Source of the DNA: Gonapodya prolifera JEL478
Lineage: Eukaryota > Monoblepharomycota > Monoblepharidomycetes > Monoblepharidales > Gonapodyaceae
Length of the DNA: 64,000 nt
Direction of reading: 5' to 3'
NCBI GenBank assembly: GCA_001574975.1
Contig: KQ965739.1
Coordinates: forward strand, 508,966-572,965
The notes beneath the pieces are model-generated. The model was not told where the DNA came from. It was given only the letters and a program-made list of their open reading frames with translations, and did not search any database. Position 1 is the first letter of the stretch. Each line of letters opens with the position of its first letter. Shown here one piece after another: positions 513 to 51,075 of this stretch. The position numbers and the translations under genes are program-made.

Positions 513-3500
513 TCACAATGTTGTCTTGTTTACATCTTTTTCTCTGTCTCTCTCTACGAATTTCTTTGCAAGTAGTGCAAAACCATCGAAAACGACTGAT
601 AACCCCATGGGCGATTCGAAGTACCCGCCTACTTCAATACTGTCAATCTGGGCCATCTTGCTCAAACACACGGTGATCACTGCCAGCTGCCAGCCTGCGT
701 ACGAGGAGTCGTAGATCGCTGTAAATCGCTCCGATCGCCCACGTAATGGTGTTGTCTTCATGTTATGGGTGTTGTTTTCTGACCAATTGATGCGCACCTG
801 TAGGCCCCAGTCCCACCCTGGACCGTCCCATATTGCGTCAGCCCGAGAATACGCAGACACCTCAATTTCTTCAAAACGACCCTGAACAGAATTATAGAGA
901 TTTGCGCCGTCGATTACTTGCCAGAATCTGGCAGTGGTCATGTCCGTTGAATGATAACCAGCGACATTGAGTGGAGTGCCTAAGCGTGCACACCAAGTTC
1001 CTGCTAAACAACCTTTGCAGATAAGTGAAAACTCAGTGAGGCCCTGTAGAGGCTGCCCAGGATGTTGCCAAGTATTTGAATCCAACACCGGTGTTTCAAA
1101 TGAAGGGTTGCGAACAAGATTGTATTCTGAATGGGAAGAAGAAAACGCTCCGCTTAGACTGAAAAGAAAAAGTCATACTCTCATTTTCACCTTCGAGCTG
1201 GTGCTCCTGAATCGTAGAGAACGACATTCTTCGTCCGCTGTCCTCCCATAGAAACCCGTTTCCCACCCTGACCCAAACAATGTATTTTGTCGCAGGCACT
1301 AGTCCATGTATGATAACAGTATCTCCGTGTCGATAGTCTTCACCTTGACCTGAGTTCACAGGAAACCATTCAAATTCATTCACTCCCTCGATGTCAGGAG
1401 CCACATAGACTTTGAGAGATCTGCAAGGTTGCTTGCATTGAACAAACACTGAGAGATGCCTCGGATGAGCCGAAATGAGATCGAGAGCTGTGGGAGGCTG
1501 GGGCACTGCGGAATTGTGAAACCACGAAAATTGGGTGGACGAAGTAAACAACCATCCTCAACCAACCACACCTTCAACATCCATGACCAACGTTCCCATG
1601 ACAAACATCTTGTCGACATGCATTTTCCGCATCGCTATTCTCCAGAAATCGAAGACCCGATTTCTCATCTTATCATAATTCGTCCGATTCTTCCAATGCT
1701 CGACCTGGCCGTGCTGGAATCCGACTGCCGGACACGTAAGAACGCCTATCCCCATATTTTTTACACGCAGAAAAAATTCTTCGTGCTCTCCAAGTTTCAG
1801 CTCCTCGTCCCACTTGATCTTTCTCTGAAAAGAGAGGGTCCGTCCCAAAAAAACGTTCGGTACGAAGTCAACCTTGTGGCAACCACGATGTGATCCCTTT
1901 GAGCCATGTTCTAGTAGAAGAATACGATCATTTTTATCCATGACACCCGAAAAATCGAAACCAAATTTGACATCATCATTCGGAATTTTCCCTGCGGCGA
2001 TTTCAAATTTTTCCTCATAGCCATCTAACGCATACAAGAGATCACCGACCCCTCCACCAGGAAGTAAGGTGAAGTCATCGTCCAGAGTGAGAAAGTATTC
2101 TGTTCTAACACGGTCCACCATCGCATTTCGACCAGCGGAAAGCCCGACATCGAACTCGAGTGGGACGTACCAAAACCCGTCTGCTTGAGTTTCGTTTGCA
2201 GCGAGTGCGCCTGCTGACTTCTTTTTCGGATTGCTCGTAGTTTGGCGTCGTTTCCAGCCCTCTCTCTTTCCTTTCGCAGTTTCACCATCATCAGTGACTA
2301 TGATTCTCATTCCTGGATACTCGTTTTGCACACTCTCGACGAGTGAGAACACTTTATCGAACCTCGAAACTGTTTTGACGATAACAGTCACTAGGGATGG
2401 CAAATGATAGACAGGAATCTTCATTGTAGCGTCCGACGCTTGATTATTCGTCTGTCGCCGTACTATCAGAAAAACGCAATCTCTGCCGGTTCCACTTTCC
2501 TTCTCCCGAGATATGTAGACTAGACGAGCAAACATGGAGTTGATCTCGGCAACTGAGCGCCCCTCCAGTGACAACGTTTCAGAGGCATGTGGAAAGAATC
2601 CTAGTGAGTTTTTAGTGCGGTGGATCATCTTTTGAAAATCCGTTGGAGCCAGCCAGAGAAGACCCCTTTCAACTTGAACTGTTGCTGTCCATTTCCCAAA
2701 GGCATCATCTTGGGAAGCAGTGGTCTGTTCGTTAACAGGTTGCGTGCAGATAATCCTGATGTCGCGGAGATCTACAAATGGTTTGCCGAGGGATACATGC
2801 GTGGGCCCAACCAGTGAGAGCGGAGTAGCGCCTAACTTCACCCGCTGACGATGACCATCCACTGAATTGTCTAGCTCGGAAAAAACAGAGAAAAGATTCC
2901 AAGCCGCGGCGAGAATAGAGTGTGGATGAGGGACAAGGTGCCGTGTCTTATGCCCATAAAGATGGAGGGACGTGGACGACCTGGTGGTGATATTAACACC
3001 TTGGTAAACGGATAATTTGTTGTCTCCAGAAACCATGACTCACCTCGACAACCGCACAGCCAGTCCTTGCGCGCCATCTTCACCTCCTCGCACAGCTTCA
3101 AATACCTTCCAACTTTCATCGTACGTATAAGGATAAAAACCGTGTCTCGGAACAACGGCGACTGTGCTGTCTTGGCCCATCCTGACCAATTCTTTGAATG
3201 CTTCAGTGACAGCCTTTGGGCCAACCGAGTTAAAAACGTTTGGTTGATATGGAGTGATTTCAAAAGCACTTTGCAACGACACAAATGGAAGAGTATGGCC
3301 CGCCGGACAGCCGAAGAGGCCTGGGGCCAAATAAGAGTCATTTCCTGACAGACACCACGAGCAGTGATTGTGAGACCTCGCAACATCACGTCCAATGAAG
3401 CATGGAATACTCGGGGAGTAAACCGGTGCCATTTGAGTGGATCTCACAGATGGCCAGGCTGTCCAGATGGGCTGAAGAAGAAAAGCATCGAAATCAGAAT

Positions 3501-4408
3501 AGACACCACCATGATGATACAAGTAGCAGAATCGCAAGAAGTCGGTCAGGTGTGAGTAAAAGTACGGGCCTTGACGCCACGTTTCAATGTCCGCGATCCA
3601 CAATTGACCAGGGCAACCATAACCACCTTCCTCCTTGGAGCGAACGAGACGCAAAAGATGATCGTCAGTCATAATTTCGACAGAAACCGAGTATCCAAGG
3701 TCAGTAAAATACTTGAAGAAGGTTTGATTGAGGTGCACAGCTAGGATAGTAACTCGCGAACGAGGGTGATGGTAAAGATACGATGATAGAACCTGTTGGT
3801 GCACCGTAAGAAATGTATCGGGAGGCGTTGTCCAGATGAAGAATATTGGCGGATCTTCAATCAAGGTTCCAATTAGACCTGAACATGAAAAATGATAGAA
3901 TGTCCATTCACACACCGGTTATAGAAAGCCGGTGGACGAAGTTAGAGTAGCTGGCATATATGGGATCTTTTTGCGAGGAAGAAGTTAGATGATGACTCAC
4001 TTCCAAGCACGTACACACCTCACCGGTACTATGCAATCCACTTATTTTTGCTAATTGAACCATGGGGTGCTTTATTTTGGAGGAAAGAGGATCAAACGTT
4101 CCCATGTGGTTTATGACTTCATACAAATCGTGAGCGTTTGATCGTTTGACAGAATGTAGGGAACGAATCAATTGCCACTCACTGCTGGCAGCCAACGTTC
4201 CTGTGGACAAGATGAGTGCACCAAGTGCAAGAATTTTCGTTGAGATATATCTTGTTGTCGGTTTTTGGAGAGTCTCGGAGCTTCGTAAACCCATGCCTTC
4301 CTTCGTGACAGAACGTTGCGGAATTGAGGGAGCGCTCGCAACTCTGATTGCCACATGCCCTTGCTCTGTAAAGGCAGCATCTGTAGCAGGGTTCGTTGAT
4401 GTATCCAT
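513..4408 (-). CDS. Two-domain glycosyltransferase: GT32-like plus GT12-like, with FN3-like and C-terminal CBM-like modules
   Basis: Predicted type II Golgi protein of roughly 1200 residues in about five exons. A short N-terminal tail and one hydrophobic anchor (near residues 54-75, ILALGALILSTGTLA) precede a GT32-type domain with YHHGGVYSDFDAF, whose SDFD is the DXD nucleotide-sugar site. Next comes a GT12/B4GALNT-like GT-A domain with VTVIVKT, the metal-binding LDDDF, and HEEFFLR near its end. After an intron at about 1560 there is a fibronectin-III-like domain. A final exon opens with LVRNPSFETP, typical of the start of a galactose-binding-like carbohydrate module. Two sugar-transfer activities in one chain suggest sequential addition to one acceptor; donors cannot be read from sequence. 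The start at 4408 gives a normal type II tail, but an upstream exon with an ATG near 4861 (intron about 4787-4643) is possible. It lies tandem, downstream of the PP1-regulator gene. Confidence 0.75.
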
Positions 4409-4891
4409 TCCGTCGTGAGCCTCGTGATTCAGTGTTCCGAAATCTTTCTTTATAAGTTTGGAATAGATTCTCGTCGCAAGGGGACCGTCATCTGGGCACG
4501 GGGCAATGATGGCTCCCGAGTCCAGACGCAAAATATGAGTTGGGGGCTTGGAGTCGTCGATAAAACATCGTCGACACGTTTCCGAGGACGTCGGCGTCCC
4601 CATTTCATTCGTTCTCTCCACGTCCTCCGCCTCGAAAAGTCCTGAAACATTCATTTTTAAGATCAAATAATCAGTCGCCACATCCGAATTTGGGAATATG
4701 ATCGGGCTTGTTGAAACCAAGCCCAGCGGAGGTGTCCAAGTACGACAAACCTCCCCCACATCATACATCGAGCTTTTCTTCTTTACCTGTATGGTTTTGC
4801 TTTTGGGAAACATGATTTGACGAATCGAAATGCAATTAAAATGTTCAATACAGCCGACCATCAAGTTGCGAAATCAGACAAAAGACAATTT

Positions 4892-7800
4892 CTATTTCGA
4901 CGCTGCCTCCTTCCCTTCTTCCCAGCTTTCGCTCCGCCTCAGCAAAGCACTAGCGCCCTCCGCGCCCAAAATATCCTTGACACCAACGTCGTGCCCCATT
5001 GCCTTCGCAGTTGCAGCGTCCCAGCTCCTCGTTCTCACTCTAGCACCCACTCTCATATGTGGCGAAAGAAGGGTATGATCGAAGCCGACAACAGGCGGGT
5101 TGAGCTGCATAAGAGGAGATCCTGCCCCGTTCGCAGGAGCGTCCGCTTCGGGTGACGTAGGACTTCCGTCTGAGAATCCCGATGTAATCTTGTGTCCGTC
5201 CACCACGATCAATTGCGGCGCACGTTTGGTCCGGCCCATGACAGGAGAAGTTGGTGCGGGGAAAAACACGTCGTAGAACGAGGCCGGCGGTGGCGCAGAT
5301 GACGCTCTGCCTATGCGGATAGGGCCTCCACCACCGCTCAACATCGCATCTCCTCCACCCATTGAAAGAGGAAGTCCACGCTCGGGGGAAAACCTCCGTG
5401 CGGATAATGTTTGAGACATCCATTTCGTCGGCATGCGAGCATGCAGCCCTTCTGAAAGAAGGGGCACCAAGCCCCCTCCTGATGGCGGTCGCACGGGACT
5501 GTTCTCGGGTGTCGACCTCGGCGTGGTTGAGGCACCCGTAGAGACGTCCGAGGACTCCACAGAGTACCCATGATCCACGGATTCCCCAGAGTGTCCCGCG
5601 ATATCCACATCAATGTCTTTCCCCCCTTCATCGTCCGTTTCCTGGCTTCCTGCATCCAAAAATATGGATTTGTACACGTACTGCCTCGGCGACTTTCCCG
5701 CCCCAGCATCTCCGTCATCAAACACCACAAACTGGGGACCAGGTACAGCACCCGTCACCCGATCCTGGTGCGAGCGCAAGCTGTCCTCTGAGAACCCGCT
5801 CTCACTTATTTCGTCTCCGTAATCTAAGCCAGACATTTCGTCCCCGCTGATATCCTGATCGTCCGACACCCAACTTCCCCATTTGGGCATCGGTGGTGGC
5901 GGTGGAACGCTTACATTGCCTCCTGCACTCGCTGCCACAGCGGCCGCGACAGCATTTGGGTTGATCCAAAGCGGGGATATTGTGGGGGGCACGTGGTTGA
6001 AGTACGTTTTAGGTGTCTGCTGTGGCGGGAAACTAAACGTGGTCTGCAGAGTTCCCCTGCCCGGCCGGTTGATGTGCAACCCAAGGGCGGTCGTGCCCAT
6101 TGACACGCTACTGGCTCCTCCAGGATTTGAACTGAACGTGGGTGGTCCGTCGGATGTCGCGCGACCAAATCCAGGGTTTGTGTTGTTGGTACTGTTTGAT
6201 GGCAGGTTTGCCAGATATTGCAGTGTTTGTGCTGTTGGTGTTCGAATGAGCTCAACCTCGTAATTATTACCCTGTCAGAGACAAAGTCGAGAGAAATTGA
6301 TTTCAGAAACACACAGATTACGTTAGTGCGTTCTCTCAAAACCAACTTCAGAGATCATTGACACTCACGGGACCTCCATTGTTGTCCCACCACTCTCCAC
6401 CCGCTGCCCTATAATACACTGCGAATGACATTGTCAACTTCTGCTGTTTCCCAACACTCTCCCTGAGTGCTTTGCTGAGGCCTTTAATGGCCAAATACGA
6501 CCACACACCACCGCTTGACGCTACACCTGTTGGGGATCCTGATGTAGTGATCAGGGCGAGGTTGGACCCCGACAAAGACCTAGCCAGGGGTGACGCGCCG
6601 TGCTGGGAAGGGGCGAAGGTGGACGACAGAGATAGGTGCTGGCGCTCGAAAACGGAGAAGAAAAGTTCCCGGAGGTCCAGATGGAAGCCAAAGACATCGT
6701 ACCCGGCGATGGTCTCATGGAACGTTTTGTATTCGCAGGGCAGGTCCGTATACGACTGAAATGTGGTGGAACACGAGTGGTAGGATGGAGAGGAAGAACG
6801 TAGGAGGTTTGTGCGTTTTAGATCGGAGCAACCCCACACTAACCGAGTCCCAACAACCCCAACGCTCTCTCGCTCACCTTCCAAAAATCCAGGGAATACC
6901 GTATCCCTACCACCTTCTCATATGCTACATTCCGCACCAGAACCTCCCCACTCACAATCTTGTCATCCACCAACTTTAGACTATGGAGGTGCACAAAATG
7001 CGCGAACACCGCCGATGACTCTGTGGGGGGAGCCACATAGGTTGGCACAGACCCTTGGGAGAGTGCAGAGGCCCCCGACGCCTGGCCTCCACCGCTAGAT
7101 TGCTTTGCGTTTCCTACGGGGTTCACAGCCCGGCCAGGGTGCACCCCCGTGCCGTCCTCGAGCCCCTTCCTCAGAACGATATCGTACTTATGCACGGGCA
7201 TGGTAGGCGCCGAGTCCGGGTCAACCATGGTGTACTTTGGATTGGTGGGAATTGTATTCGGTATGTCGGATTTTTCGAACAGAACGACTTTGCGGAGCTC
7301 TTGGTTCTCAAACAGGACGGATTTCTTGGCGTGAGAGGCCTGAAAGCGTCGAAGGAGAAATGGGAAGAGGCATTGTTTTCAGAATGTTCAACCACATGTC
7401 ACAACGACGATCTAATCCCAACCCTTCTACTCACATTTCCAACCTTCCTCCCACTCCTCAATACCGGCCTGACCAACTTTCCCCCTTTGGTTCGCGGTAC
7501 CACATCCAGCACCGAGCTGGCATACCCACTCCACCCACCCCCCTCCTCTTCGCCCAAAGCTGGGCTCGACGCCGATCCTGATCCAGAGCCGGGACTCCCG
7601 TCGGGGTAACCCATGCCCATTCCCACACCGCGAGGTCCCCTACGACCCCTTACAGGCGTCGCTTGGCCAGGAGGGGGGAGCACGGGCGGTGTGAAACGGG
7701 GTGACCCTGGAGTGGAAGGAGCACGACGAAGGCCCAACCCAGCGGGAACTGGTGAGTGGGTACCAAGGGGAAACAATACTGGAGGGGCAGATGAGCGGTG

Positions 7801-9798
7801 CTGCAAGGGGGGCGCGAAGCCAGGCAGTGGTGTGGAAGCAAGGTCGGCAAGGGAGGACGGCGCAGAAGAGAGTGTGGGTACGCTGGATAGACCTAAGTCG
7901 AGGGACGGCGACGAGGAAGGGGGCGAGGAAGACGGTAGGGAGGTGGGAGATGAGGGGCGGGGAGAAGTTGGGTGCCTTGCGTCGTCCACCTCCACTCGGA
8001 AGCCTCCTCTCCCCCCCGGCCGCTCCGCCACGGCTGAGGGCGGACTAGGCACAAGAGCTGCCAAAGGCCTGCTGAGAGCAGAAAGTCGAGATTGGTCACC
8101 ACCGGGGGATGGGAGCAAGGCAGCAGATTGGACTCGCCGCATGCCGAGACTGGGTGAGGCAATAAGAGGAGCAGAGGCATCCATGAGAGACGCAACAGGG
8201 GTTGCAGGTGGTAGAGTGCGGTTTGTTGGGCCAGAGGTCCCAATTGGTGGTCCAGGTCCCATTGTGATACTTGGTATGTGGAGTCCACCTGCCACCCCGT
8301 TCATAGCCAGTCCTCCATTTAGTCCCAGCCCACCACCCAGTCCAACATGGTCGCCTCCACTGCCTGAATACCTCTTCAGTCTTGGCCCAGCGTGGCCACC
8401 CCCCGGCGACCTCTCCCTATTCCTCGGTATGTCTGGCCCAAACATCTCCCTCGTCGCCTCGTCGTCCCTCCACAAAACGCCGATCGCCTGGCGAGAGGAG
8501 AGCGAGCGAGGGGGTGAGGGGTCTGACGGGAGAGGGTGGTTGAAGTGGAGAAGAGGTGAAGGCGACAAAGGTGAGAGGGAGGAAACGGGTGGGTGAGAAA
8601 GGGAAGAAGACGGATGCGCTGAGGTATGGCTAGTGGAGATGGATATTGGGCCCGTGAACGCGGGGATGTTGGAAACATTGGCACGCAGGTCGGGGCTCGG
8701 CAACGAGAGCGGCTCCGATCCATGAGCGAGGGGTCTTTGGTTCACCCTCACTTCACCGCTTGATGTCAACAATGTGCCCACGAGCCCAGCACCCTGGTTT
8801 GTTGTTGAGCCTCCACCAGAGTACTGCTCCGCGAGGGAGACCGATCCGGGTCTCGCCACCTCTGGAGTCCACGTAATAGAGTCGTCGTCCGAGTCCAGAG
8901 GTAGGTGCAAAGTAGAAATAGGGAGTGGAGATGAAGGCGAGGTCGGGGTGTGAGCGCGGGCAGAAGGGGAGGATCGGTGGTGGTGGCGTGTTGGAGATGG
9001 ATGGTGGAGAGGAGGATTTGTGGGTGAAGAAGACTTTGGGGAGGATGATGAGGAGGGAGAGGTAGAGGCAGACGGAATGGCAATGGGAGACGGAGAGGGA
9101 GATGGAGTTGGAGCAGGAGTCGGAACAGATGGATGGTTCATGCTTAGGGATGGAGGATTAGTGGAAAGGGAAGAAGGGTCTCGCGCAGGAGATGCCGCAA
9201 CTAGCGAGTTTTGTTGAGAGTTGAGGGAGAGGTGGGAGTTGAGAGAAAAGGGGAAGGAGAGGAGCGAGGTGCGCGGGGAGATATTGTTTGCAAAGAGTGA
9301 ATTGAGAATTGAAGCGTGCGAGGCAGGAACGACGGAGAAGAGCGAGTGTGCATTGGGAGAGATGGATTGTGCGTGCATGGGTGCAGAGTGGTTGGTGTTG
9401 GCTCCGTGCGACTGCGACTCCGAGTGCGACTGTGTTGACGCGGAGTGCGACAGCGTGTCAAGCTCAGTCTCCGTCTCTGTCTCGCTGTGGGGTTGCCGCT
9501 CGGTCTCCGTTGCCGTCCCACTGCTGTTGCTTCCCGTGTCCACATCCCCATCGCTCCACGTCGTCCCGTCCTCCCCCCTTTCCACCCTCTCCCTATCCAT
9601 GCCATTCATGCTCTCTTCTTCCCTATCCTCGTCTTCGTCTCCCGAGCCGCTGTCCCACTCCACGCCTCTCTTCCACCCAAGTGACTCACTCACGCCAACC
9701 TCGCCCCCTCCGCTCAACGGCGGCGATGGAAGCCTGCTCCCGCCTTCGACACCTCTCCCTTCGTATCCCACAACGTACACGCGGACTACTCCCTCCAT
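4892..9798 (-). CDS. Glycogen-targeting protein phosphatase 1 regulatory subunit (Gac1/PPP1R3-like, CBM21)
   Basis: A PP1 regulatory subunit that would bring the phosphatase to glycogen and so control glycogen synthase and phosphorylase in the cytosol. The first exon (about 800 codons) is Ser/Pro/Thr-rich and probably disordered. The second carries KSVLF, a match to the PP1-docking RVxF motif, followed closely by KVVLFEKSDIPNTI as in fungal Gac1 proteins. The following exons give a CBM21 domain: SGEVLVRNVAYEKVVGIRYS, DVFGFHLDL, MSFAVYYRAAGGEWWDNN, then NNYEVEL after an intron near 6360-6282. The C-terminal exon (about 440 residues) is low-complexity and acidic. Introns lie near 7426-7361, 6873-6760 and 6360-6282. 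The frame is open upstream to 9846 but the first ATG is at 9798. Its usual role is storage polysaccharide, so its place inside a surface-glycan cluster may be coincidence. Confidence 0.8.
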
Positions 9799-38274: not shown

Positions 38275-39498
38275 TGGTCATACCCAGGATGTGAACACCA
38301 ACATACCCCGCTTTAACATACGAAGTGTAGTACTCGACGTTCGCAAATTCCCGATCTGTGAAGGCTTCCCCTCTCAAGCATTCTCGCTCCTTTGCGACAC
38401 CCTCGTTGACTGCTCTTTCAAGCTCAGGATGGAGAAACTCCATGTCATCCAACACCATTATTGATTCCGGTCTGGCAAGTGCCCGGAAATGGAGTATATC
38501 GAAGAACGGCTGGGGTGGTGAGTGGGAACTGCAGACTAATGATTCCAGTTAAAGGGCACGCTGATCATTATTTGACTCACCCATCAATCGAAATGAGGTC
38601 ACACTTGGTGTGAGGATGTTTCCGTGCAAACTCGGGAATAGAGGTATTGGAGTCTCCACTGACAGTAGTAAAACGCGAGGCATAATGTTCACGAATATAA
38701 TTCAATGTCACTTGCTGAAAAAAGCAGTAGAAACGGAATGGTCAAAGTAACCGAAGGTGCCTTTTACGATATACCCTCACCTGGAAGACATTTTGCTTTT
38801 CCAATACTTCCCATTGTGGGGTATTGTCGACAGGGAATATGTCAAAGCTGTAAAGATGAGCGTTTGGGTTCATTGTAAGATAAAGCACGGAACTGGTAGA
38901 CATAAAGCAAACGGGTTACACCTCTGGGACAGCGGAAGACGACACCAGACATACCTGTGACCTGCGCCATACCCAACCTCGCAAATGGTTTTCACGTGCG
39001 GCGCTGCTGCAGCTCGAGCATAGTAGTATACTTGACTGGGAAGCCCTATCACAATGAAGTTAAGCTCTCCGCACTCGGTCAGAGAGTGTGTCTTTCAGCC
39101 AAATACTCGCAAGCAATGTTTCCAATCACCCCCTGTCGCCCTCCTGCCGCTTCGTCCAGTCCAGTTTGCAGTTTTCGAAGGGTGGCATAGTACCGCCCGA
39201 GGTTTTGGAAGAACCTTGGGTAACATTAGAACAATTGGATGGCGGCGAATAATTAAATTGAGAGTTCCATAAAAGAGCATGCTCGCGACGCAGGCACAAG
39301 AGACTCGGTCGCCGCGCTTGGCAGAGCTCACATGGGAGTGTTGGGTGACCAGTCTCCTACACCGGCAACGGTAATCGAAATGCTTGGAACGAGAGCACGC
39401 CCAGATAGAAAAACCAGTCCAAGTATCAAGGAAGTAATCGCTATGACTGTGACCATCGGCGCCCGTGCAAAACGGGTTGTCCTTCCAAGAAGATCCAT
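38275..39498 (-). pseudogene. Broken copy of the Methyltransf_24-like gene
   Basis: Inverted paralogue of the gene at 35274. The first exon (39498-39332) is open, with anchor MVTVIAITSLILGLVFL and the shared WSPNTP before the donor. In the second exon the copy has two extra bases around 39080-39096 relative to its partner, just after GNIACEYLAE, which puts TGA in frame. Downstream exons are all open and conserved (SSVLYLTMNPNAHLYSFDIF, CDLISIDGSHSPPQPFFDIL, IMVLDDMEF). Similarity ends just past the last shared donor, so the final exon of the partner is missing. The frameshift plus the lost 3' end suggest a recent pseudogene. A sequencing error at the two bases is possible but would not restore the 3' end. 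Confidence 0.7.
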
Positions 39499-39656: not shown

Positions 39657-40646
39657 ATGACATTACATTTCCGCCATACAATCCCCGTTCTCGTGTTTCT
39701 ATGCTTACTTGCATTTTACATGCTCTCCCAGAGGGACTCCCACCTCGCCAAGCGGCCAGGAGGTGCACTCTTCTCTGACCCAACTCGTCGTCCTGTCGCC
39801 ATCGCCACGATTATCACATCTGACGCATACCTCGATGCAGCCATGGCTTTGCGCTACTCGATCCGAAAGCGCGGCACGGTGGCACGGACAATCGCCGCCT
39901 ACGTCCCCAAGCAGCTCTCCAACCGGTCGTTGTGCTTCTTGGAAGCAGTGGGGTGGGAGCTCCGGCCGGTGCCCCTTATCAAAGCTCCAGATCCCGGCGA
40001 TGGGAGGAAAATTGCTGACGACCGGTTCAAGGACTTGTTCTCGAAACTGCAGTTGTATAAGTGGACAGAGTATGAGCACATCTTGCTGCTCGACGCCGAT
40101 ACGCTGCTCTTGAGATCAATTGACGATATCTGGGATTTGAATGTTGACTTGGCAGCTGTTGGTGACGTTTGGATGGATAGACTGGACCTTGGATTTAATG
40201 CTGGTGTGCTCTACTTTCGTCCAGACATGGGCACCTTCAAAGCAATGGAGAACTCCATCTACCGAGATGTTGATAAGTACGACATAACGTGGTCAGAACA
40301 AGCATTTTTAAACTACTTTTATCGCTTCAAGTTAGTGCTTGTCGTTGTTGTGACCGACCCGATGATGTTTGAACATTGTTCCCGCAGGTCCGTACGTCTG
40401 CCGTATGCCTATAACTGCCCTTTAGCTTTGAAAATGCACAAAGACGCGTGGCCAGTTGTTCGACCTGAGGCCGTCATCCTTCATTTCACATTACAAAAGC
40501 CTTGGAACCATCCCCGTCCAGGCCCTCAGGGGAATTGGGCGTCGGAACAATTCGCCGAAGAATTTAATGAATTCTGGGCGGTCAAAGACGAACTTGATAA
40601 CGATACACGATATAATGGCTTCCAGTGTAGAGATAGCAGGAGCTAG
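39657..40646 (+). CDS. GT8 family glycosyltransferase (glycogenin/galactinol-synthase-like)
   Basis: Type II membrane protein; the anchor is TIPVLVFLCLLAFYML (residues 8-23). GT8 marks in order: IATIITSDAYLDAAMALRYS, DLFSKLQLYKWTEYEHILLL, the DXD site LLLDADTLLL, VGDVWMDRLDLGFNAGVLYF, WSEQAFLNYFY and VILHFTLQKPWNHP. A 57-base, stop-free intron (40331-40387) is likely, since its removal gives FKSVRLPYAYNC, matching the family's R-L-P-Y-x-Y-N. Retention would insert VLVVVV-type residues. The anchor argues against cytosolic glycogenin and for a Golgi enzyme using a UDP-sugar. Its ATG is 158 bases from that of the divergent pseudogene. Confidence 0.85.
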   Translation: MTLHFRHTIPVLVFLCLLAFYMLSQRDSHLAKRPGGALFSDPTRRPVAIATIITSDAYLDAAMALRYSIRKRGTVARTIAAYVPKQLSNRSLCFLEAVGWELRPVPLIKAPDPGDGRKIADDRFKDLFSKLQLYKWTEYEHILLLDADTLLLRSIDDIWDLNVDLAAVGDVWMDRLDLGFNAGVLYFRPDMGTFKAMENSIYRDVDKYDITWSEQAFLNYFYRFKLVLVVVVTDPMMFEHCSRRSVRLPYAYNCPLALKMHKDAWPVVRPEAVILHFTLQKPWNHPRPGPQGNWASEQFAEEFNEFWAVKDELDNDTRYNGFQCRDSRS

Positions 40647-40996: not shown

Positions 40997-42848
40997 ATGG
41001 CAGGTGCACGGAAACTCAACGTCCGGCGCACGCTTCTGGTCGCAGCGGTGGTGTTGGCAATGCTGGTGTGGTTGCTCGCCCCGTCCAGCGACAGGAACAG
41101 CCAATACCCTGCCGCCACGGACTCGTACCCGGAGAGCAGCCTACTTAACGTGGACTGGACATCATCCGGTTTCGGGGTCGGCGCAGATCCCTCAAATCTG
41201 ACGTTGGCCCATTTCGAGACCGCTATCCTGGCAAAGAAGGAGCTGCTATCTCAAACCGAAGCTCAAGATATAAGCACACTTGGCAAGAGAATACGTGCTT
41301 ATGTAAAACTTCACATGATGCTCCTGGCACTCCATGACCAGACGCGACGACGGTCGCTGGCATCCTGCGCTTCAGAAGGCTCAGGATGTCTCTCAAAGGA
41401 CCCTAACACAGAGTCAGCCTACGCGCGACTTGTTCTTGACGACTTCTCCCACCTGGTAGCGGCGTTGGAGCGCTCTCTCTTCCAATTTTTCGGCGGTAAC
41501 ATATCCACACCCCTTCACCTGTACAGCCTCTTCGCGCGAGAACCACGAACACGCGGAATAGTCATCTCCGCTGGAAATGGACACGTTCGGCTCGCAATGG
41601 TGGCAATCAGATCCGTCAGGGCTGCTGGGTGCACCCTACCGATAGAGGTCATGCATGCTGGACCTTCAGACCTCGTACAGGAATTTCGAGACAAGATAAT
41701 GTCTTTGGGAGACGGTTATGATATTGTCACGAAGGATGTTTATCAATTCATCGACAATAGTGCGGCTGGTATTGGAGGATGGGCCGTGAAACCCTTTGCC
41801 ATAATGTATTCGAGCTTCGCGGAGGTGCTTTTTCAAGATGCAGATGTTCTCTGGCTCGGAAGTCCGAACGAAGTGTTTGAAGACCCGGTCTATAAGTCCA
41901 CGGGAACACTCTTCTACATGGACAGGGTGAGAAACAAAGACTTGATAGTTTTACCTCGTTGTTGATAACTTGAATGGACAGCGCACACTCTTTGGCGTGG
42001 GGGAAGAAACCTACAATTTCGCAGTGAGCGTCCTCCCCGAGACCATGAGGAATCCCGTTCCAGAGGCCCTCAAGTCTCAAAACGCGATGCTTGCGGGAAA
42101 ATCTTCGCACCAGCAAGAGTCCGGAGTGGTCGCGGTTGATAAGAGTCGCATCAGCAATATTTACGGCCTCTTGACGACGTGCAAACTCAACACCGCGGAA
42201 ACGCGAGACAAAGCCGTCTACAATAGGGTCTTTGGCGATAAGGAGACCTTTTGGCTTGGCTGGGAGATGGCCGGCATGTCCGCCATGGACGGTATGTACG
42301 GGTGGACCCCGTGGCCCATGATTCAAATCGGATACATTCTTCGGGGTGACCAGGATGCCGAATGGGTCATCAAAGAGGCGAACTGGGGTGTACCCTACCA
42401 GGGCCACGAAAACGACAAAGACATTCGCAGGATTTGTTCCCTGCAATTGGGTCACCTGGACGCGACGGGTACCCGACCACTGTGGTTCAATGGCGGCCCG
42501 TTGCGCGACAAGTTCCTCGGAGCGGCGTCCCCAGTTACAACGCCCACGCACTGGGCTGTGGAGCACCATTCGCGGTGGGATTTGTTCACGGACAATATCG
42601 CCTGCCTGTATCTCAAACCAGACACAGGCCCCGACGTTTCAAATGATGGCACCGTGACGGAACGGCCCAATATTGCGATAGAATTTGAGCTTGATCACGG
42701 AGACGGGCACAGTGTGGGAAGAACTAAAATGTCATATGTGGACAAAGCCGATGGAGGGTTCGGTGGTGCACTTGCGCATAAGCTCAAGCCAAAAGAATTA
42801 AAACTGTTTGATACCCTGAAGATTTGGTGGGAGGAGACGAACAGATAG
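40997..42848 (+). CDS. GT71 / Mnn1-like mannosyltransferase family protein, copy 3
   Basis: Third and most diverged GT71 paralogue. Anchor: TLLVAAVVLAMLVWLLA (residues about 12-28). Core blocks: MVAIRSVRAAGC, EVMHAGPSDLVQE, GWAVKPFAIMYSSF, the DXD site VLFQDADVLWL, HQQESGVVAVDKSR and FGDKETFWLGWEM. Only one intron (41937-41981, 45 bases) is present, at the same DR|RT position as in copies 1 and 2. The other introns of those copies are absent, with the sequence reading straight through. It has lost the acidic DDD of the EFMYAGDDDLP block, which reads HAGPSDL, so acceptor use may differ. It converges on the exostosin-like gene, 76 bases away. Confidence 0.87.
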
Positions 42849-42924: not shown

Positions 42925-44681
42925 TCATCCATATGGAAGATCCGCGAGTCCTCCTCTATATCTCGACTCAATGATTTCGAGGACGGTCGCCATCATGGCC
43001 TCCCAGCTAACCATGTAGCGGTCAAATAAATCCGCGATCCGTCTTTTTATCTCCCATACTCTTCTTCCTCCATCTGCGGTTGCCAAATGTCGCAGGTATG
43101 TGGTTATGCGTTCCCGGCCTTGTTCCGTTTCCAGTTCCTCCACGTTGAAGAAAACGGCAATGCTTCTATAGTCGATTACTTCCGAAAAAGGAAGAGGGTA
43201 TGAAGGGGTATAGAATATCACAGGGATGGCGCCTGTTGATAGTGTTTCGTAAAATCGATCTGTAGCGGGAAGGATATCTGTCAGCTCGAGCATTATGTGC
43301 GACAGTCGATGAATTACATTCATGAACTCCGTAACCTCCAACGAGTGCACTGAATGTCGTATTTACTAAGAGATCTGTCAGATAGCTTCCAACATGAGTG
43401 TCGAGATAATGAGAATAATGGACCCAATCTCACCGTCGTAATCGTACTTTGCATACATCGGATCTGTTTTCTCGCAGTCCGCCATGGGGTTGTACTCCGT
43501 GAGATTCATGTATGGCCAACTCCCACTGCACTTCGCGACGCTGATGATGTCTTCATTGTTGTGAAGTTGGAGGATTACAGTTCGAAGAGGCTTATCATGG
43601 TACCTCGAGCCCTTGAACGTCAAGAGATACTTGGTTCGAAAGGGGTTGCGCTCATTTGGAGGCTGTCCCGCGTGGAATCTCGAACCCGAGTTGCTCCATA
43701 GCCAACTTGCACCACCTCGTCGAATGTTGCCGCTTGGATCAACAAGGCGTAGGTGGTGAAGAGATTTCCAATTCCGCAGAGGCATCGTCACATCAAATCC
43801 TACTCGTGGCTGATTCGCGTAGAAGTTGGTGCTTACGACGATGCTGTGTGCAACAAGCTGTCCTGGATCCGGATCCTGAACCTGAAAGAGTATATGATTC
43901 TTTCCCAGTGTACCAGAGAAGTTCCAGTAGCTCAGCGACTCCATATGTTGAAGGGCGAACTCCCTCGAGAACAGACATTGGTTATATGCGCAGGACAAAT
44001 CCAGCGAAGGAATGAAAAGACACGCTTGCTCTGGATCGTGCGTTATGAGGCGCCGTAGGCGCTTTTCGTGGTCGAGAGGTAGTTCGGCTTTAGATGAGAA
44101 CGATAGGCCGATTGGTTGTGGATTGGATGCTTTATGCTCCTTGAGTGGGGAATTTCGATTTTCTAAGCTCCAATTGGCAGCTCTCTCGACAGGAAGAAGA
44201 GCTTCGCTTTGGAACCATGCTACAGGAAGGGTCGCATTCCGTGGGTAGACATAACTTCGTTGTCCCGTTAGAACATTTCCGTGGAGCAGTTCCACAAACA
44301 CTCACGCTCTGAAGCCTTTACGTCGACGGCAAAGATCGAAATCAAAGCATGTATACATGTTACATAGCTTGCGCCAGTAGAATGGGGGCATATCCGTCCA
44401 GGCCCAAATGTCATCGTGAGCTCTCGGGATGGACGGGATCGACACATTGGATGGATACGGATGCTTTTTCACTCGCCGATGTTCTCCAGCATCTTTCCTC
44501 TAGATGCCACGTCCAGGTTAGAATCCGCCAAAGGGAAAGGGAAAGGGAACAGTAGCGATCATACATTGAAGCTGGGAAAGGAAACGAGGCTCCGGAGAAT
44601 GAATGGAATGACGAAAATAGAAGCGAGTAATACTAGGCGGAAATGTCGCCGTAGATGAGGATATGATTGCAACCAAATCAT
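42925..44681 (-). CDS. GT47 exostosin-family glycosyltransferase
   Basis: Four exons: 44681-44565, 44499-44306, 44254-43434 and 43349-42925. Exon 1 encodes an anchor (LVLLASIFVIPFILRSLVSF). Exons 2 and 3 join as KGFRAYVYPRNATLPVAWFQ, the usual exostosin N-terminal strand preceded by a Cys-rich CFDFDLC. Next come EQACLFIPSLDLSC, YWNFSGTLGKNHILF, TKYLLTFKGSRYHDKPLR and, in the last exon, LTDILPATDRFYETLSTGAI followed by PVIF. That last block is the exostosin 'R-F-E-A-L-x-x-G-x-I-P-V' signature. Animal exostosins build heparan sulfate and plant GT47 build hemicellulose or pectin; fungi rarely carry this family. No second GT64 domain is present, so it is a single-activity enzyme. Confidence 0.82.
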
Positions 44682-44975
44682 GGCGGTGATTCAAGACTCG
44701 ATCATTTGGTTGCGGTTGTCTGGGTCTGTCCAGAAGTGAAGACAAATGAATTCGACCTCAACAGAGAGAGAACGAACCAGTGCTTAGTAATCTTAATTAC
44801 AGTACATAATAGCTCGAATGCAAATCAGAAGACTAGAATTTATTTTTCCTCAGTGCGAAAAGCAACTACTTGCCCAATAAGCTGATACATTGGTATGTGG
44901 GCGTTGACAAAGTGTTTATAAGTCAATTGACAATTTTGATACGAGGAGAAGAGTTTGGGAGTGCAATGGTATCCT

Positions 44976-46286
44976 TCAATCCTGGTGCAATTGTGACGCG
45001 TGAACCAACAAAAACTCGGTGCAAGCAGTACATAGGACATTGTGTTCTGATGAGGTATCATGATGTCCGTGAAATCCGTGAATAAGAAATCAAGTTCCAA
45101 GTACCATGTGTAGCGACTCACCTTTAATGACAACATGATAACCCAATTTTCTCCAACTCTTGTAATACTCAAGAACCTGTCGAGTGTTGTACAAGAGGCT
45201 TCCATAAAAATGCATTTCCACCGCTATTTGTGTTGGCAGAACGACGGGATTTTTCAAAAGTGTCCGGAAGACCTGATGCTCGCCGCCTTCAATGTCCTGT
45301 TCAATTCAAACATGTTAGCAGCTGCCGGCGGCTGAACAATCTTGTAGAAACGTCACCATTTTCAAAATATCCACAGCATTATGGCCAAGTTCTGTTACGA
45401 TGCTTTCGAATGTTTTGTAGATTCGTCCGTAAGTCACACCGGCGTTGTCAACATCGCTCAGGCACCATGGCCGGAAATTGATGTATGAGTGGGTAGCAGG
45501 TGGCTCCGTAGAAGTGCAATCGAACGTCCAAATCTAAGCACAGAAGAGGACAAGAAGTAATATTTGCATAGTCGATTGATCACCTGCTTACCTGGCATTT
45601 TCCACCACTTTCCGCATGCATTGCATCCTCAAAACTGAAGTCCCCGTTACTCCCAAGAGAGTAAATAATGCATGGCTCAGTCTTCGGAACCACGCATATC
45701 CTACAGCACAGAGGGTCAATTTTATTGGACGCTGAGAGACTATTTGATCCAAGCAAGGAAGTAATACGCACCATTTCCCACCATCTCCAATTGCTGGCCG
45801 CCGAGCAAGGTGGTTCGGGTCACACATGTAGGTCGTTGGGATTAGATTGTACATATCCCACCCTCGCCCAGCTTGAAGAAACGTTTGAAGTTCGCCGTCG
45901 CTTAAAGCAAGAAATTCGTCCACGACCTTATCCACGTTAAGTTACCATATTAAGAGTGTATCAAGGATACGTCGAGAGATGAGACATACCTTGCTGAAGC
46001 TGCTCGACAGATACTCCCCCCAGCATTGGTTTGATCCCTCACGGCCCATGCCAGACTGTGCACTTTTCCGAGCTTTTTCTCGAAGGCATCCAAGAACAAT
46101 GGACATATCTGTCGAATTTTCATGGGATTCCAGTGCCATCGTCGGAAATCCTTGCTTCTGCGATAATTTGAATGGTTGGTGTGGTGAAAGGCGGCAGAGA
46201 GATGCGGTTGCGACCAAGAGAAGAAGGAAGACGATTGATGCTACGATGAAGCGCTCTGAAGGGAGGCGCATGGCCGCCCAGGTCAT
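44976..46286 (-). CDS. METTL24/FkbM-type methyltransferase, diverged member
   Basis: The ATG at 46286 opens an anchor (FIVASIVFLLLLVATASL). I read six exons. After the first intron (donor 45989) come VVDEFLALSDGELQTFLQAG and CDPNHLARRPAIGDGGKW. Then VPKTEPCIIYSLGSNGDFSF is the conserved Methyltransf_22 first block, and IWTFDCTS follows as its partner. LGHNAVDILKMDIEGGEHQV is assembled across an intron and gives the LKxDxEG hallmark. The fifth exon has IAVEMHFYGSLLYNTRQVL, and the last, after a donor at about 45122, is the short HNVLCTACTEFLLVH, with a stop at 44976. Members of this family carry E-G-x-E-x where others have E-G-F-E-W. It is tandem with the exostosin gene and likely acts in the Golgi lumen. 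Confidence 0.75.
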
Positions 46287-47162: not shown

Positions 47163-47488
47163 TGCGCGAGGAACGCGAGGAAAGGTCTGCTGTGCTGCGA
47201 ACTTCGAGTTTTCTTCACATCCCGGCCGCGCACACCCGCCTTTCGCTTTCGCTGCCCGTCCACTACATTCATTTTCAACCAAAATAAAGATTATTTTACG
47301 ACATATTCTTACAGCTTTCAATTCATTATTTGCTGGCACGGATGGCATGTCTTCGAATGGCGAACATAGAACTTCATCTTATATGGGATGAAAGGAGCGG
47401 TCATATTAGTTTCACAAACAGAAAAGAGGTGCAGCTTTCAAGTCGAGAACCGGCGGCAATAATTGATCAGTCAGTGAAACCCAATATC

Positions 47489-49220
47489 ATGAGACCTGAT
47501 CCGCACAAGCAGGAAGCATCGCGTCGCGTGGGTTTCTGTTGAATCGCCCAGATTTCGTTATCCAATAGCATTGACATTTTCAATTCATCCTTCGCTCTGA
47601 CCAATCGTCCGCGCCAGTATCACGCGAAGCAGAGAGCGGCGGGTCGTGGATCTGACGCTCCTGCACGAGGAGGGCCTTCACCACGAAGGGGCAACGGCCG
47701 CGGACGGGCTGGTTTTTCGGGCAATGGACAGGGACGCGGCGGTTGGACTGGTGACCATGAAGGGAGCGGCGCGGTTTCTGGTTCGCCAGTTAGCGGACAC
47801 GCCGAAATACAAGATTATGAAGACGCTGTCTACGAGGATGATTTGGAAGTTGGCGATGCAGTCCCGAAAGGCAGTCCCAACAACATGCCGGGACCCAGTG
47901 GCGCTTCTGCTGCATCAAATTCCTTCAGTCGCCGCAAGATTGAGTCGAATGCGTGGAGGTACAACGAACACGATGATTCGACGGCGCAGGTCGATGTTGT
48001 TCAAACAGAGACTGCTGAACTCGCTGAAGCGGTGATGGCATGGAGTAAGCATTGGTCAGCTGATAGGGGGCTTTACGTGCTTTACGTGGCTGTCCGTGCT
48101 GACGATATGCCGATGAAAGGTTCTTCTCGGGCCTCCGCTGCGGCGGACCCACCATTACAGGATTGGGAAACTACCGAGACGACATCTTCCCGGTCCACGC
48201 GAGGTACGGTCGCACCCGCAAACGCCTCCGAAGCGGAGGTGAGCAATTCGCATTATGGAACACGATGACGGGCATTCCTTTTTAACTTCGCTCAAACCTC
48301 ACTTACCCCTTGTATCGCTACAGGCTTCTGCATATCTATCTTCCTTGTTTTCAGTGGACTTGCAATCTCTCTCGGGCCGGCTCGCTAACGTTTCGGTCGA
48401 CGATTCTCAGGTCCCGTATGACCGAGCGCCATCCTCGGGGACATACTCGTATCGCCCAACCTTCGCATCGACCCCTTTGTACCGAAATGACCGACCGTTC
48501 ACATGGCGGCCATCATCCGTCCGTCCTGGGCGGGCAAGTGCTTCAAGCTGGGATGATTCTCGCAATTTCAGTTACGGATATCCTTCCGGACCCATGTATC
48601 CGAGTGCCAATGGAATCGGGAGCGCTGGTACCCTCCGCACGCCTGCTGGCACGAACTTTTCTTCTCCCCCTCCGGACGCGATGTCAGACCCCTGGGATGA
48701 GTACGAGGTGTACGAGTCTGACCCAGAGTCCGACTTTTCGGATGATAACGGTGACGGGTGGTATGTTCCACCCGAGATTCTCACCCAGACGCCTCCTTCC
48801 GCAAGCGGATTTGGGCCGGCGGCCCCTGCGACTGCGAACAGGTCGATTGAAAACCCCTCTTGGAACCTTGACGCGCCGGAATGGGTTCCAGGAGCAACAT
48901 GGGGTTCCGCCGCTGTGACCTCAACTGAGTTTAAGGGAACTGGTGGATGGGATGGCGAAGCCGAAGGACCAAAGCCTTCTCCCACTGGAACGAATGAACT
49001 TGATACTCTTCTTGGAACTTCCTCCACCGTTACCAGCACAGGCAGACCACGGGGCTCTGGCCGCGGCACTTCTGCGAGAGGCAGTAGGGGCGCCAGCCGT
49101 GGTAGTCGGGGTGCTACGCCTTCACGTAGAGGAAGGGCTGGTGGGAATGCGGCTGGTAGAATGGGATGGGATGGCGAAGTTGAAGGTGGCGACGATTTGG
49201 ATGAACTACTTGGGTTGTGA
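47489..49220 (+). CDS. RGG-rich, probably RNA-binding protein with a PAM2-like motif
   Basis: I place a short first exon (47489-47527, MRPDPHKQEASRR), then 47618 to about 48043, about 48121-48239, and about 48323-49220. The N-terminal part has RGG/RG repeats (ARGGPSPRRGNGRGR, GQGRGGWTG), the middle is acidic and disordered (DPWDEYEVYESDPESDF), and the end has more RGG-like repeats (RGSGRGTSARGSRGAS). NPSWNLDAPEWVPGA resembles the PAM2 motif (L-N-x-x-A-x-x-F-x-P) that binds the MLLE domain of poly(A)-binding protein, with Trp for Phe. A short GWDGE unit occurs twice, the second close to the C-terminus. A role in mRNA handling is inferred from these features alone. I do not recognise a named orthologue. 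The first exon is the least certain part. Confidence 0.6.
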
Positions 49221-49463: not shown

Positions 49464-51075
49464 TCACCTCGATCCTCTCCAAACTTGGACTGAATCGACA
49501 TGGGGTTTGTGTGCTAAGAACACCAAAGGTTGAACGCTTGTTTGTGTGGAACTTGCACCGAAACTCACGTGATAATATTGAACAAAACCGCTCTTCTCGA
49601 ACTTATCCAAAAGTTCGACCCAACCAAGAATACCCTCCACGTCCTGAACCTCCTGAGACACACTTGGAACGTCAGCAGGGGGGGATCCAGATGGAGATGT
49701 AGGTCTCCACTTTCGGAAGAATTGTGGGAACATGTGGACCTCGAACAACACCTGGCGAAAAGGAATAAGTGTTCCCAACTCTAGTGATAGAGAGAGTAAC
49801 CGGATCACCAACCTGCTCGACGTGGTCCATGACTCCGTCTTCAAACGCTCTTGCGAGGGTATCCCACTCGTAGCCTTCCACATCGATCTTCAGCAGGTCG
49901 ATGTGGGCGTGTCCCAAGCGCTTCAAATGGTCGCTCAGAGTTAAAACCTCCCATACGGTCTCCTTCCCTGTCCGAAGACCGACACCGGTTGTTGTTTGCG
50001 ATTCGGCGGCGATACCACGATCTTGGTGGTTGAGAGTTTCGGGGTTACCTCACTTCTTTGACCAGATCCCAAATTAATCTGCCACTCACTCCAGAACCAT
50101 TGGTTCCTGCCGCGATAGTGGCTTTCCATGTCCATCGATGGATCAAATCTTCATGTTTGAGAGAGTGATGTTCAGGCAAATGGACTTGAAAACCCTGGAG
50201 CGAGTGCGTTGACTCACGAGTGGGTTTCACATCCCGTCATGTTGTGGAATTCATCCTCCCAACTGAAATCCCAGTCCACACCAAACGTATAGACCACGCA
50301 CGGGGGATCATTGCCGAGCTCGGCTTGAGAAGCAGCGTGTCCGAAGATTGTTTCATTCCGGAGATCGGTCTGACCCTCGGGGGGGCGCGTTAAGGGCTCC
50401 GGCTCCCTTTCAAGACCAGCGTTGGCCTTGTCCAGTTGCTGCAGCTCAGAGCCTGGGCGGAAGTAAATGCCCTGCGTGGGGGCTCTGCGGGAAGCACGGG
50501 CGCCGTGGCGTCCACGAAGTGACTCCACTTGTGAAAGATCTTGGACCCGCTCAGAGATTTCAGATGCGCTTTCGATAACGTCCCTTCGTCCATGTTTGGG
50601 CTTGGGTTTGAATTTCAACCAGGCGGGACCGTGGGATGGATTGGTGAAGATGACCTGCTCCCACGCATCAAAGCACACAGGCCAGACACCATCCCCTGAA
50701 GGAGCTCCGCCGAGGGAGTAGAGAGCCTTGCAGGCGTATTGGTTCTGTTTTCGAGGATTGAAGGCACACGATTAAGTTGAAAAAACAGTTCCAAATCATC
50801 ATGGTACATACTTTGTTGAACCTGAACATCAAGGCGAACACTGCCGAATGGGCATCCCAGTGAACGCCCTGTTCCCTGAGCGAGCTGCCGACCGCGTACC
50901 GCTGGGTGTCACTCTGCGATGGTTTCTGCTGAAAAGATGGCGGTGGCAATTCGCAGGGGGGCGCCGCACGAAGAAGGTAGAGGTCGTCGGCAAACAGGAA
51001 TGTGGCGGTAATGAAGATGGTCAGGATGATTCCCAAGCTGAGCGCTGTGCGGGACGGCGTCCACGCTGGTGCCAT
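49464..51075 (-). CDS. METTL24-type (Methyltransf_22) methyltransferase, copy 3
   Basis: Close relative of the pair at 26192-29446. Exon 1 from 51075 has the anchor ALSLGIILTIFITATFLFA and HWDAHSAVFALMFRFNK. Exon 2 opens NQYACKALYSLGGAPSGDG and contains CVVYTFGVDWDFSWEDEF with GCETHS. Then follow FDPSMDMESHYRGRNQWFW, an exon with GIAAESQTTTGVGLRTGKE and LLKIDVEGYEWDTLARAF, and a final exon opening VLFEVHMFPQFFRKW and ending with a LAHKPHV block near the stop. VLFE is joined directly to VHMF here, unlike copy 2, where an intron separates them. It is convergent with the RGG-protein gene. It marks the right end of the glycan cluster as I define it. Confidence 0.82.

What the first reader, a model, noticed from the sequence alone, without database searches (positions are those of the whole stretch)
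513..51075. A 50-kb cluster of eleven glycosyltransferase and seven methyltransferase genes
GT32-GT12, GT37-like (two), GT90, GT71 (three), GT77, GT32-lectin-GT2, GT8 and GT47 genes are packed together with seven membrane-anchored methyltransferases. Nearly all have one N-terminal anchor, as Golgi enzymes do. Eukaryotic glycosyltransferase genes are usually scattered, so clustering at this density suggests a dedicated pathway for one complex, methylated and probably fucosylated glycan. In an organism with wall-less zoospores the product could be a coat, capsule or adhesive. The families are read from motifs; the pathway and product are inference.
Basis: partly seen in the sequence, partly recalled or inferred. 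Interest (0 to 1): 0.88.

Follow-up and report, generated by a model that had tools for sequence, protein, structure and literature searches.

The report
Clustered sugar-transferase and methyltransferase genes
A 50,000-base stretch of a probably fungal genome packs together nineteen genes, most of them for membrane-anchored enzymes that link sugars or probably add methyl groups to them, which is unusual for a eukaryote and suggests, without proving it, a dedicated machinery for decorating some complex glycan.

Summary
Spliced gene models put 11 glycosyltransferase genes at 513-51075: GT32-GT12, two GT37-like, GT90, three GT71, GT77, GT32-LamG-GT2, GT8 and GT47. There are eight methyltransferase genes, not seven; one (P) has a broken frame. 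All 11 glycosyltransferases and 6 of 8 methyltransferases reach a Pfam cut-off; J rests on a SAM-like motif, P on homology to N. In 18 of 19 models there is an N-terminal hydrophobic segment; in none of 9 others. Three unrelated genes interrupt (CBM21 protein, Rpn13, RG-rich protein). No such gene was found among five flanking genes to the right; the left edge is open. Local duplication explains 6-7 genes; 8 unrelated glycosyltransferase and about 4 methyltransferase founders remain. Seven of eight paralogue pairs are synonymously saturated yet conserved in protein, so the array looks old. "One methylated, fucosylated glycan" remains inference: no sugar-nucleotide, transporter or membrane-synthase gene was found, no upstream motif beat shuffles, and synteny and expression could not be tested. 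Precedents: the Ostreococcus "viral immunity" chromosome, giant-virus glycogene clusters, the fungal GAG cluster. A new variant of a known kind.

The parts
513..4813 (-). A: GT32 (Gly_transf_sug/Gb3_synth) + GT12-like (B4GALNT1-like) two-domain transferase, weak fn3-like stretch and unassigned C-terminal domain; start codon uncertain
   Evidence: 5 exons, 1320 aa; PF04488 2.6e-8, PF00535 6.8e-7, PF04572 7.9e-5; B4GALNT1 2.7e-10; fn3 only 0.032
4892..9798 (-). B: CBM21 protein, an interrupting gene, probably not part of the system
   Evidence: PF03370 1.9e-21 on a fragment; no hydrophobic segment
10541..11882 (-). C: anchored methyltransferase, Methyltransf_24
   Evidence: PF13578 8.4e-6, 27.1 against 26.3 bits
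12346..14510 (+). D: GT37-like (XG_FTase) a
   Evidence: PF03254 2.9e-6; joint D+G profile hits plant FUT4 3.2e-12 and FUT1-type chains 5.7e-6
14589..16476 (+). E: GT90 (POGLUT-like)
   Evidence: PF05686 7.6e-18; POGLUT2 4e-13
16577..18886 (+). F: GT71 a; one intron placed by hand from paralogue I
   Evidence: PF11051 2.2e-37; F+I+R profile hits MNT2 7.1e-10
18951..20879 (+). G: GT37-like b
   Evidence: PF03254 1.3e-7; 42% identical to D
20898..22252 (-). H: GT77
   Evidence: PF03407 8.8e-28; no solved relative by sequence at E up to 1
22333..24509 (+). I: GT71 b
   Evidence: PF11051 7.7e-36; 62% identical to F
24865..25803 (+). J: probable anchored methyltransferase, class I SAM-like motif DIGAGIG; first exon uncertain
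   Evidence: PF08242 E 0.081, below cut-off; motif position; no NCBIfam match
26192..27842 (-). K: Methyltransf_22/FkbM-like methyltransferase
   Evidence: PF13383 2.8e-13, PF05050 1.2e-7
27914..29504 (+). L: Methyltransf_22 methyltransferase, head-to-head with K (71 bp)
   Evidence: PF13383 2.6e-12; PF05050 below cut-off; gap
29613..34787 (-). M: GT32-like + two LamG-like stretches + GT2 + weak TPR, with a second hydrophobic segment before GT2
   Evidence: PF00535 8.4e-29, PF13385 6.5e-15, PF04488 0.0049 below cut-off; GalT1 1e-20, chondroitin synthase 1.2e-16
35274..36596 (+). N: Methyltransf_24-type methyltransferase; C-terminus uncertain
   Evidence: PF13578 1.3e-10
36673..38123 (-). O: Rpn13/ADRM1 proteasome subunit, an interrupting housekeeping gene
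   Evidence: PF16550 9.7e-20, PF04683 1.3e-10 on a shorter model; full model
38246..39498 (-). P: inverted copy of N (79% DNA identity over about 1.3 kb) with a broken frame and no SAM motif in the model; probable pseudogene or assembly error
   Evidence: not scanned with Pfam
39657..40646 (+). Q: GT8 (glycogenin / Skp1 galactosyltransferase-like); its one intron is uncertain
   Evidence: PF01501 1.2e-8; Skp1 alpha-galactosyltransferase 3.6e-18, glycogenin-1 2.3e-17
40997..42848 (+). R: GT71 c
   Evidence: PF11051 1.2e-39
42925..44681 (-). S: GT47, exostosin-1-like
   Evidence: PF03016 4.3e-20; EXT1 2.2e-18
44840..46271 (-). T: Methyltransf_22, divergent from K/L/V; 3' exons uncertain
   Evidence: PF13383 3.5e-17; 22-26% identity to K/L/V
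47357..49220 (+). U: RG-rich protein without Pfam match, an interrupting gene; start uncertain
49464..51075 (-). V: Methyltransf_22/FkbM methyltransferase
   Evidence: PF13383 6.8e-17, PF05050 9.2e-10
51366..54283 (-). MetE (cobalamin-independent methionine synthase), flank; marks the right edge
   Evidence: best match 4ztx 849 bits

Best explanation
This is an old, locally expanded cluster of Golgi-type glycan assembly and capping enzymes in a probably fungal genome. Shown: 11 GT genes of eight unrelated kinds and 8 methyltransferase genes of about four kinds lie within 50.6 kb, nearly all with one N-terminal hydrophobic segment; the density comes from founder genes plus local duplication; most paralogue pairs are conserved in protein although saturated at synonymous sites. 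Inferred: the GTs use sugar nucleotides supplied by genes elsewhere. They build branched, protein- or lipid-linked glycans with mannose-, GalNAc-, xylose/glucose-, galactose-, uronic-acid- and fucose-type transfers, by family analogy. The anchored Methyltransf_22, Methyltransf_24 and J enzymes O-methylate sugars with SAM. The products are surface or secreted glycans: a coat, adhesive or matrix. Whether the genes make one glycan or a family of alternative ones is open; the repeated families favour a family of related glycans.
For: Domain calls: 22, 23, 59-62, 73. Hydrophobic segments in 18 of 19 models against 0 of 9 other models (two of the nine, CC and RIGHT, are doubtful models), Fisher 1.4e-6. 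Motifs aligned with solved enzymes: the GT71 DAD with MNT2 DSD, GLGNR with FUT4, DDDF with B4GALNT1, GT2 DADD with GalT1 DSDD. Four intron positions shared by K/L/V, and one by I and R. pS 0.78-0.90 against pN 0.20-0.31 for 7 of 8 pairs; N/P dS 0.49, dN/dS 0.25 (only codons in locally alignable stretches were counted). Tight packing: gaps of 18-100 bp from D through I, and head-to-head pairs 71-158 bp apart (H/I, K/L, P/Q). XG_FTase genes and probable de novo GDP-fucose synthesis are reported in Chytridiomycota (passages of PMC10481521).
Against: No sugar-nucleotide enzyme, sugar transporter or membrane synthase among the 26 of 27 named models scanned. No upstream k-mer above the 95th percentile of shuffles. 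Three unrelated genes interrupt. No expression, synteny or biochemical data. Methyltransferase substrates are unknown; the Methyltransf_22 set has no solved relative by sequence at E up to 1, and its FkbM NCBIfam scores are below cut-off in the two members tested, T and V. H has no solved relative by sequence. [quoted passage not shown] Gene models are my own, partly set by paralogue homology, without RNA.
Confidence: 0.55

Rival explanations
1. Surface-glycan diversification locus: the cluster is not one linear pathway but a reservoir of GTs and methyltransferases that varies surface glycans against viruses, parasites or hosts, as proposed for the small outlier chromosome of Ostreococcus.
For: Local paralogues in four families, an inverted duplicate (N/P) and a disrupted member. 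GT and methyltransferase genes, an FkbM methyltransferase among them, are concentrated on O. tauri chromosome 19 with spatial grouping and duplications (passages of PMC5082852).
Against: 7 of 8 paralogue pairs are synonymously saturated and conserved in protein, so not young. GC and GC3 of the cluster genes overlap those of their neighbours, though GC tends to be lower. No epimerase/dehydratase or transporter genes as on that chromosome. No population data.
Confidence: 0.22
2. Passive clustering: tandem duplication plus low rearrangement has left glyco-genes side by side, without functional coupling.
For: Extra local copies account for 6-7 of 19 genes; unrelated genes sit among them; no shared upstream motif.
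Against: After collapsing paralogues 12 of 15 distinct genes are still GT or methyltransferase founders, P about 1e-13 per start at an assumed 5% background. Duplication cannot bring unrelated families together.
Confidence: 0.18
3. Endogenised giant-virus or bacterial glycogene cluster.
For: Giant viruses carry 38-49 kb glycogene clusters, with GTs and sugar methyltransferases in some (passages of PMC9614988). The GT2 part of M has bacterial solved relatives (names, organisms recalled).
Against: All 19 models have 1-9 introns (that of Q is uncertain). Five viral scans (GT71, Methyltransf_22, GT37, N and J queries) gave one relative, a GT71-like gene on a contig whose ORFs look phage-like by my reading. 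The prokaryotic scan, made with J only, found no relative. Solved relatives of the GT71, GT37, GT12, GT90, GT47 and GT8 genes are eukaryotic enzymes (organisms recalled). The scans use short peptide patterns and may miss distant relatives.
Confidence: 0.03

Closest known systems
Small outlier chromosome (chromosome 19) of Ostreococcus tauri and other Mamiellales (PMC5082852, passages read)
   Same: Eukaryotic concentration of GT and methyltransferase genes (table: 14 GT and 8 methyltransferases, protein/DNA ones included, in 290 kb), an FkbM methyltransferase near grouped sugar genes, duplications.
   Different: There a whole outlier chromosome with epimerases/dehydratases and sugar transporters; here 11 GT and 8 methyltransferase genes in 50.6 kb of intron-rich DNA next to housekeeping genes, without such genes found.
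Galactosaminogalactan (GAG) five-gene cluster of Pezizomycotina (PMC4817252, abstract and outline; PMC8224951, search listing)
   Same: Fungal, physically linked exopolysaccharide genes; product serves adhesion.
   Different: Five co-regulated genes including a deacetylase; here many Golgi-type GTs and methyltransferases, no deacetylase found.
Giant-virus glycogene clusters, e.g. CroV 38 kb, Tupanvirus 49 kb (PMC9614988, passages read)
   Same: Size; GTs with sugar methyltransferases in some; methylated glycans known.
   Different: Viral and with sugar-synthesis genes; here introns, N-terminal anchors and no sugar-synthesis gene found.
XG_FTase/GT37, GT71 and GT77 families of early-diverging fungi (PMC10481521, PMC8778642, passages read)
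   Same: Same families, reported present (XG_FTase in Chytridiomycota) or variable (GT71, GT77) in such fungi.
   Different: The passages read give family distributions, not this physical linkage; GT77 expansion is placed mainly in Mucoromycota.

Membership tests
GT71 (Mannosyl_trans3) | Whole-domain profile match and DxD motif | tested here: met
   F, I, R near full-length matches, E 1.2e-39 to 7.7e-36; DAD aligned at the MNT2 DSD
GT37 (XG_FTase) | Profile match | tested here: met
   D, G above gathering score, best stretches of 40 and 46 residues only; profile hit to plant FUT4 and FUT1-type chains
GT37 (XG_FTase) | Fucosyl transfer from GDP-fucose | not testable with these tools
   needs biochemistry
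GT47 (exostosin) | Exostosin domain match | tested here: met
   PF03016 4.3e-20; EXT1 2.2e-18
GT12 (B4GALNT) | Similarity to B4GALNT1 over the catalytic domain | tested here: met
   Gene A region, E 2.7e-10 from three short collinear pieces, one with DDDF; best single piece 0.0048
GT32 | Gly_transf_sug DXD domain | tested here: inconclusive
   A met (34.9 bits against 23), M not met (18 bits)
Methyltransf_22 | Profile match | tested here: met
   K, L, T, V reach the PF13383 cut-off
FkbM family (NCBIfam TIGR01444) | Profile cut-off | tested here: not met
   T 18.2 and V 31.8 bits against 37.7; K and L not given to NCBIfam. Pfam's FkbM model PF05050 is reached by K, T, V and not by L
Glycan O-methyltransferases | Sugar O-methylation activity | not testable with these tools
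   needs biochemistry
Mamiellales-type small outlier chromosome | GT and methyltransferase concentration | tested here: met
   11 GT + 8 methyltransferase genes in 50.6 kb
Mamiellales-type small outlier chromosome | Epimerase/dehydratase and sugar-transporter genes | tested here: not met
   none among the 26 of 27 named gene models scanned
Mamiellales-type small outlier chromosome | Atypical composition / separate chromosome | tested here: inconclusive
   cluster CDS GC 0.47-0.56, nine other models 0.50-0.65; chromosome context not held
GAG-type fungal exopolysaccharide cluster | Deacetylase, epimerase and synthase genes | tested here: not met
   none found; gene roles other than the deacetylase are recalled
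Co-regulated biosynthetic gene cluster | Co-expression and conserved synteny | not testable with these tools
   no RNA data; no genome held for the window

The most novel reading that the evidence does not exclude
A non-Dikarya fungus keeps an ancient, dedicated genomic locus for making and diversifying O-methylated, fucosylated, EXT1/B4GALNT-type (animal- and plant-like) surface glycans: a eukaryotic counterpart of a bacterial capsule locus, possibly acting as a surface-variation or anti-parasite system like the Ostreococcus immunity chromosome.
Probability: 0.2. Interest if true: 0.8.

Novelty: new variant of a known kind. Interest (0 to 1): 0.55.

Why it matters
Physically linked sets of Golgi-type GTs are uncommon in eukaryotes, and glycan structures of early-diverging fungi are poorly known (both from general knowledge, not from a call). 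If the genes act together, the locus predicts a testable glycan (methylated, with hexuronic-acid-, GalNAc- and fucose-type transfers) and supplies enzymes for it. It would also be a further eukaryotic case, beside the Mamiellales chromosome, of a GT-methyltransferase locus, which bears on why glyco-genes cluster.

Tried and rejected
Rejected: viral or bacterial origin (and introns in all 19 models). Recent burst of duplication as the whole explanation (saturated pS in 7 of 8 pairs). Shared promoter element: the most frequent 6-, 7- and 8-mers upstream of the 19 genes were below, at and at the 95th percentile of 100 shuffles. MetE next door as supplier of methyl groups: possible but not argued. 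Led nowhere: AlphaFold models of J and of the A C-terminal domain, single sequence, mean pLDDT 32.8 and 38.4, so no fold search was made; Rfam, tRNA and tandem repeats empty; first gene-finder settings merged genes and were dropped; hhalign of Methyltransf_22 against C gave no match; Pfam found nothing for the left-edge ORF or the A C-terminal domain. The motif strings were picked by eye from each protein, so that call only gives their positions. Literature searches, whose lists are capped at 6-20 papers of up to 13,244 matches, listed no paper whose title or abstract start describes this locus. This is no proof that none exists, and without the organism's name a targeted search was not possible.


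Full report
Approach. The window is intron-rich eukaryotic DNA and no whole genome is held for it, so I could not measure density elsewhere, synteny or expression. I wrote a small Viterbi gene finder trained on the window. I then corrected eight models by hand, from splice sites and paralogues (D, F, H, L, N, Q, T, V), and added flank models. The start of A, the first exon of J, the intron of Q and the 3' ends of N and T remain uncertain; no RNA supports any model.

Observation. Between 513 and 51075 there are 22 gene models: 19 glyco-type and 3 others. Glycosyltransferases: A GT32 plus a GT2-like domain that matches B4GALNT1 (GT12) at 2.7e-10; D and G XG_FTase/GT37-like, whose joint profile hits plant FUT4 at 3.2e-12; E GT90 (POGLUT2 4e-13); F, I, R GT71 (MNT2 7.1e-10); H GT77, without a solved relative by sequence; M weak GT32, LamG-like and GT2 (GalT1 1e-20 and chondroitin synthase 1.2e-16); Q GT8 (Skp1 galactosyltransferase 3.6e-18, glycogenin-1); S GT47 (EXT1 2.2e-18). 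Methyltransferases: C and N Methyltransf_24; K, L, T, V Methyltransf_22; J below every cut-off but with a DIGAGIG motif; P, not scanned with Pfam, a copy of N with a broken frame.

Boundaries and interruptions. B is a CBM21 protein (scanned as a fragment), O is Rpn13 and U is an RG-rich protein without a Pfam match. To the right lie MetE, V-ATPase H, PTPS, a coiled-coil protein and a histidine phosphatase; a last model at 63-64 kb was not scanned. To the left is a truncated ORF (10-408) with no Pfam match, so the left edge is open.

Anchors. At a mean Kyte-Doolittle hydropathy of 1.6 or more over 19 residues, 18 of 19 cluster models have a hydrophobic segment within the first 45 residues. Gene A reaches only 1.55, at residue 190 of a model whose start may be too early. 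M has a second segment at residue 1165. None of nine other models has one; two of these nine (CC and RIGHT) are doubtful, and the partial left ORF, which has a segment at residue 82, was left out of the count. Fisher test 1.4e-6. This fits type II Golgi topology but does not prove location.

How the cluster arose. All-against-all comparison: F/I 62%, F/R 42%, I/R 46%, D/G 42%, K/L 50%, K/V 50%, L/V 45%, N/P 67% identity. K, L and V share four intron positions, all found by the program before hand correction. I and R share the one intron that R has; F's matching intron was placed by hand from I, but F and I share two further introns found by the program. They are therefore DNA-level copies, not retrocopies. 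D-E-F and G-H-I look like a repeated GT37-x-GT71 block. Seven of eight pairs have pS 0.78-0.90, too high for a finite dS, with pN 0.20-0.31: old copies conserved in protein. Only codons in locally alignable stretches were counted, which favours conserved parts, and the eight pairs represent four families. N/P is younger (dS 0.49, dN/dS 0.25). Collapsing paralogues leaves 8 GT and about 4 methyltransferase founders among 15 distinct genes. At assumed backgrounds of 2-10% the chance is 1.8e-18 to 3.4e-10 per start point. The backgrounds are assumptions, not measurements.

Function. By family analogy the set could transfer mannose-, GalNAc-, glucose/xylose-, galactose-, uronic-acid- and fucose-type residues and cap with methyl groups; donors and acceptors are inference. 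Catalytic-type motifs line up with solved enzymes for GT71, GT37, GT12 and GT2. For the other GTs and the methyltransferases I only located motif strings picked by eye (their meaning is recalled). What is missing matters: no nucleotide-sugar enzyme, transporter or integral-membrane synthase in the 26 of 27 named models scanned. So this is an assembly and capping set that would depend on donors supplied from elsewhere. I prefer a family of related, branched, probably O-methylated surface or secreted glycans over a single linear pathway. It is not tested here, nor is the organism a proven chytrid. MetE matches PDB entry 4ztx best (849 bits), then 3ppf (788), with 1u1h at 768; that these are Neurospora, Candida and Arabidopsis enzymes is recalled. 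The margin is small, so 'fungal' is likely but not proven.

Comparison with the literature. O. tauri chromosome 19 carries 14 GT and 8 methyltransferase genes (protein and DNA ones included) in 290 kb, with an FkbM methyltransferase near grouped sugar genes and changed expression in virus-resistant lines (passages, PMC5082852). Giant viruses have 38-49 kb glycogene clusters, some with methyltransferases (passages, PMC9614988). GAG is a five-gene fungal cluster (abstract, PMC4817252). XG_FTase genes occur in Chytridiomycota (passages, PMC10481521). [quoted passage not shown] The locus is therefore a new variant of a known kind of arrangement, denser in GT and methyltransferase genes per kilobase than the O. 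tauri chromosome, and without donor-synthesis genes found.

Verdict. Observation confirmed with small corrections; interpretation partly supported. The strongest open alternatives are a glycan-diversification locus and passive clustering; synteny and RNA-seq would separate them.

Noticed in passing
35165-36497 and 38299-39605: A 1.3-kb inverted repeat (79% identity) made of methyltransferase genes N and P flanks the proteasome gene Rpn13; it could promote inversions of that gene.
   Followed up: partly
51366-54283: MetE (methionine synthase) lies directly beside the last methyltransferase of the cluster; it may be chance.
   Followed up: no
10-408: Partial minus-strand ORF at the left edge with no Pfam match and a hydrophobic segment; the cluster may extend to the left of the window.
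   Followed up: partly
516-1124: C-terminal domain of gene A (starting YNLVRNPSFETP) has no Pfam match; it may be an unrecognised carbohydrate-binding module.
   Followed up: partly
L001 8715-9605: A GT71-like gene (33% identity to F, query residues 232-451) on an IMG/VR contig whose other ORFs look phage-like by my reading.
   Followed up: no
18441-18451 and 29082-29093: Apparent micro-exons of 11 and 12 nt in F and L, supported by alignment with paralogues.
   Followed up: partly
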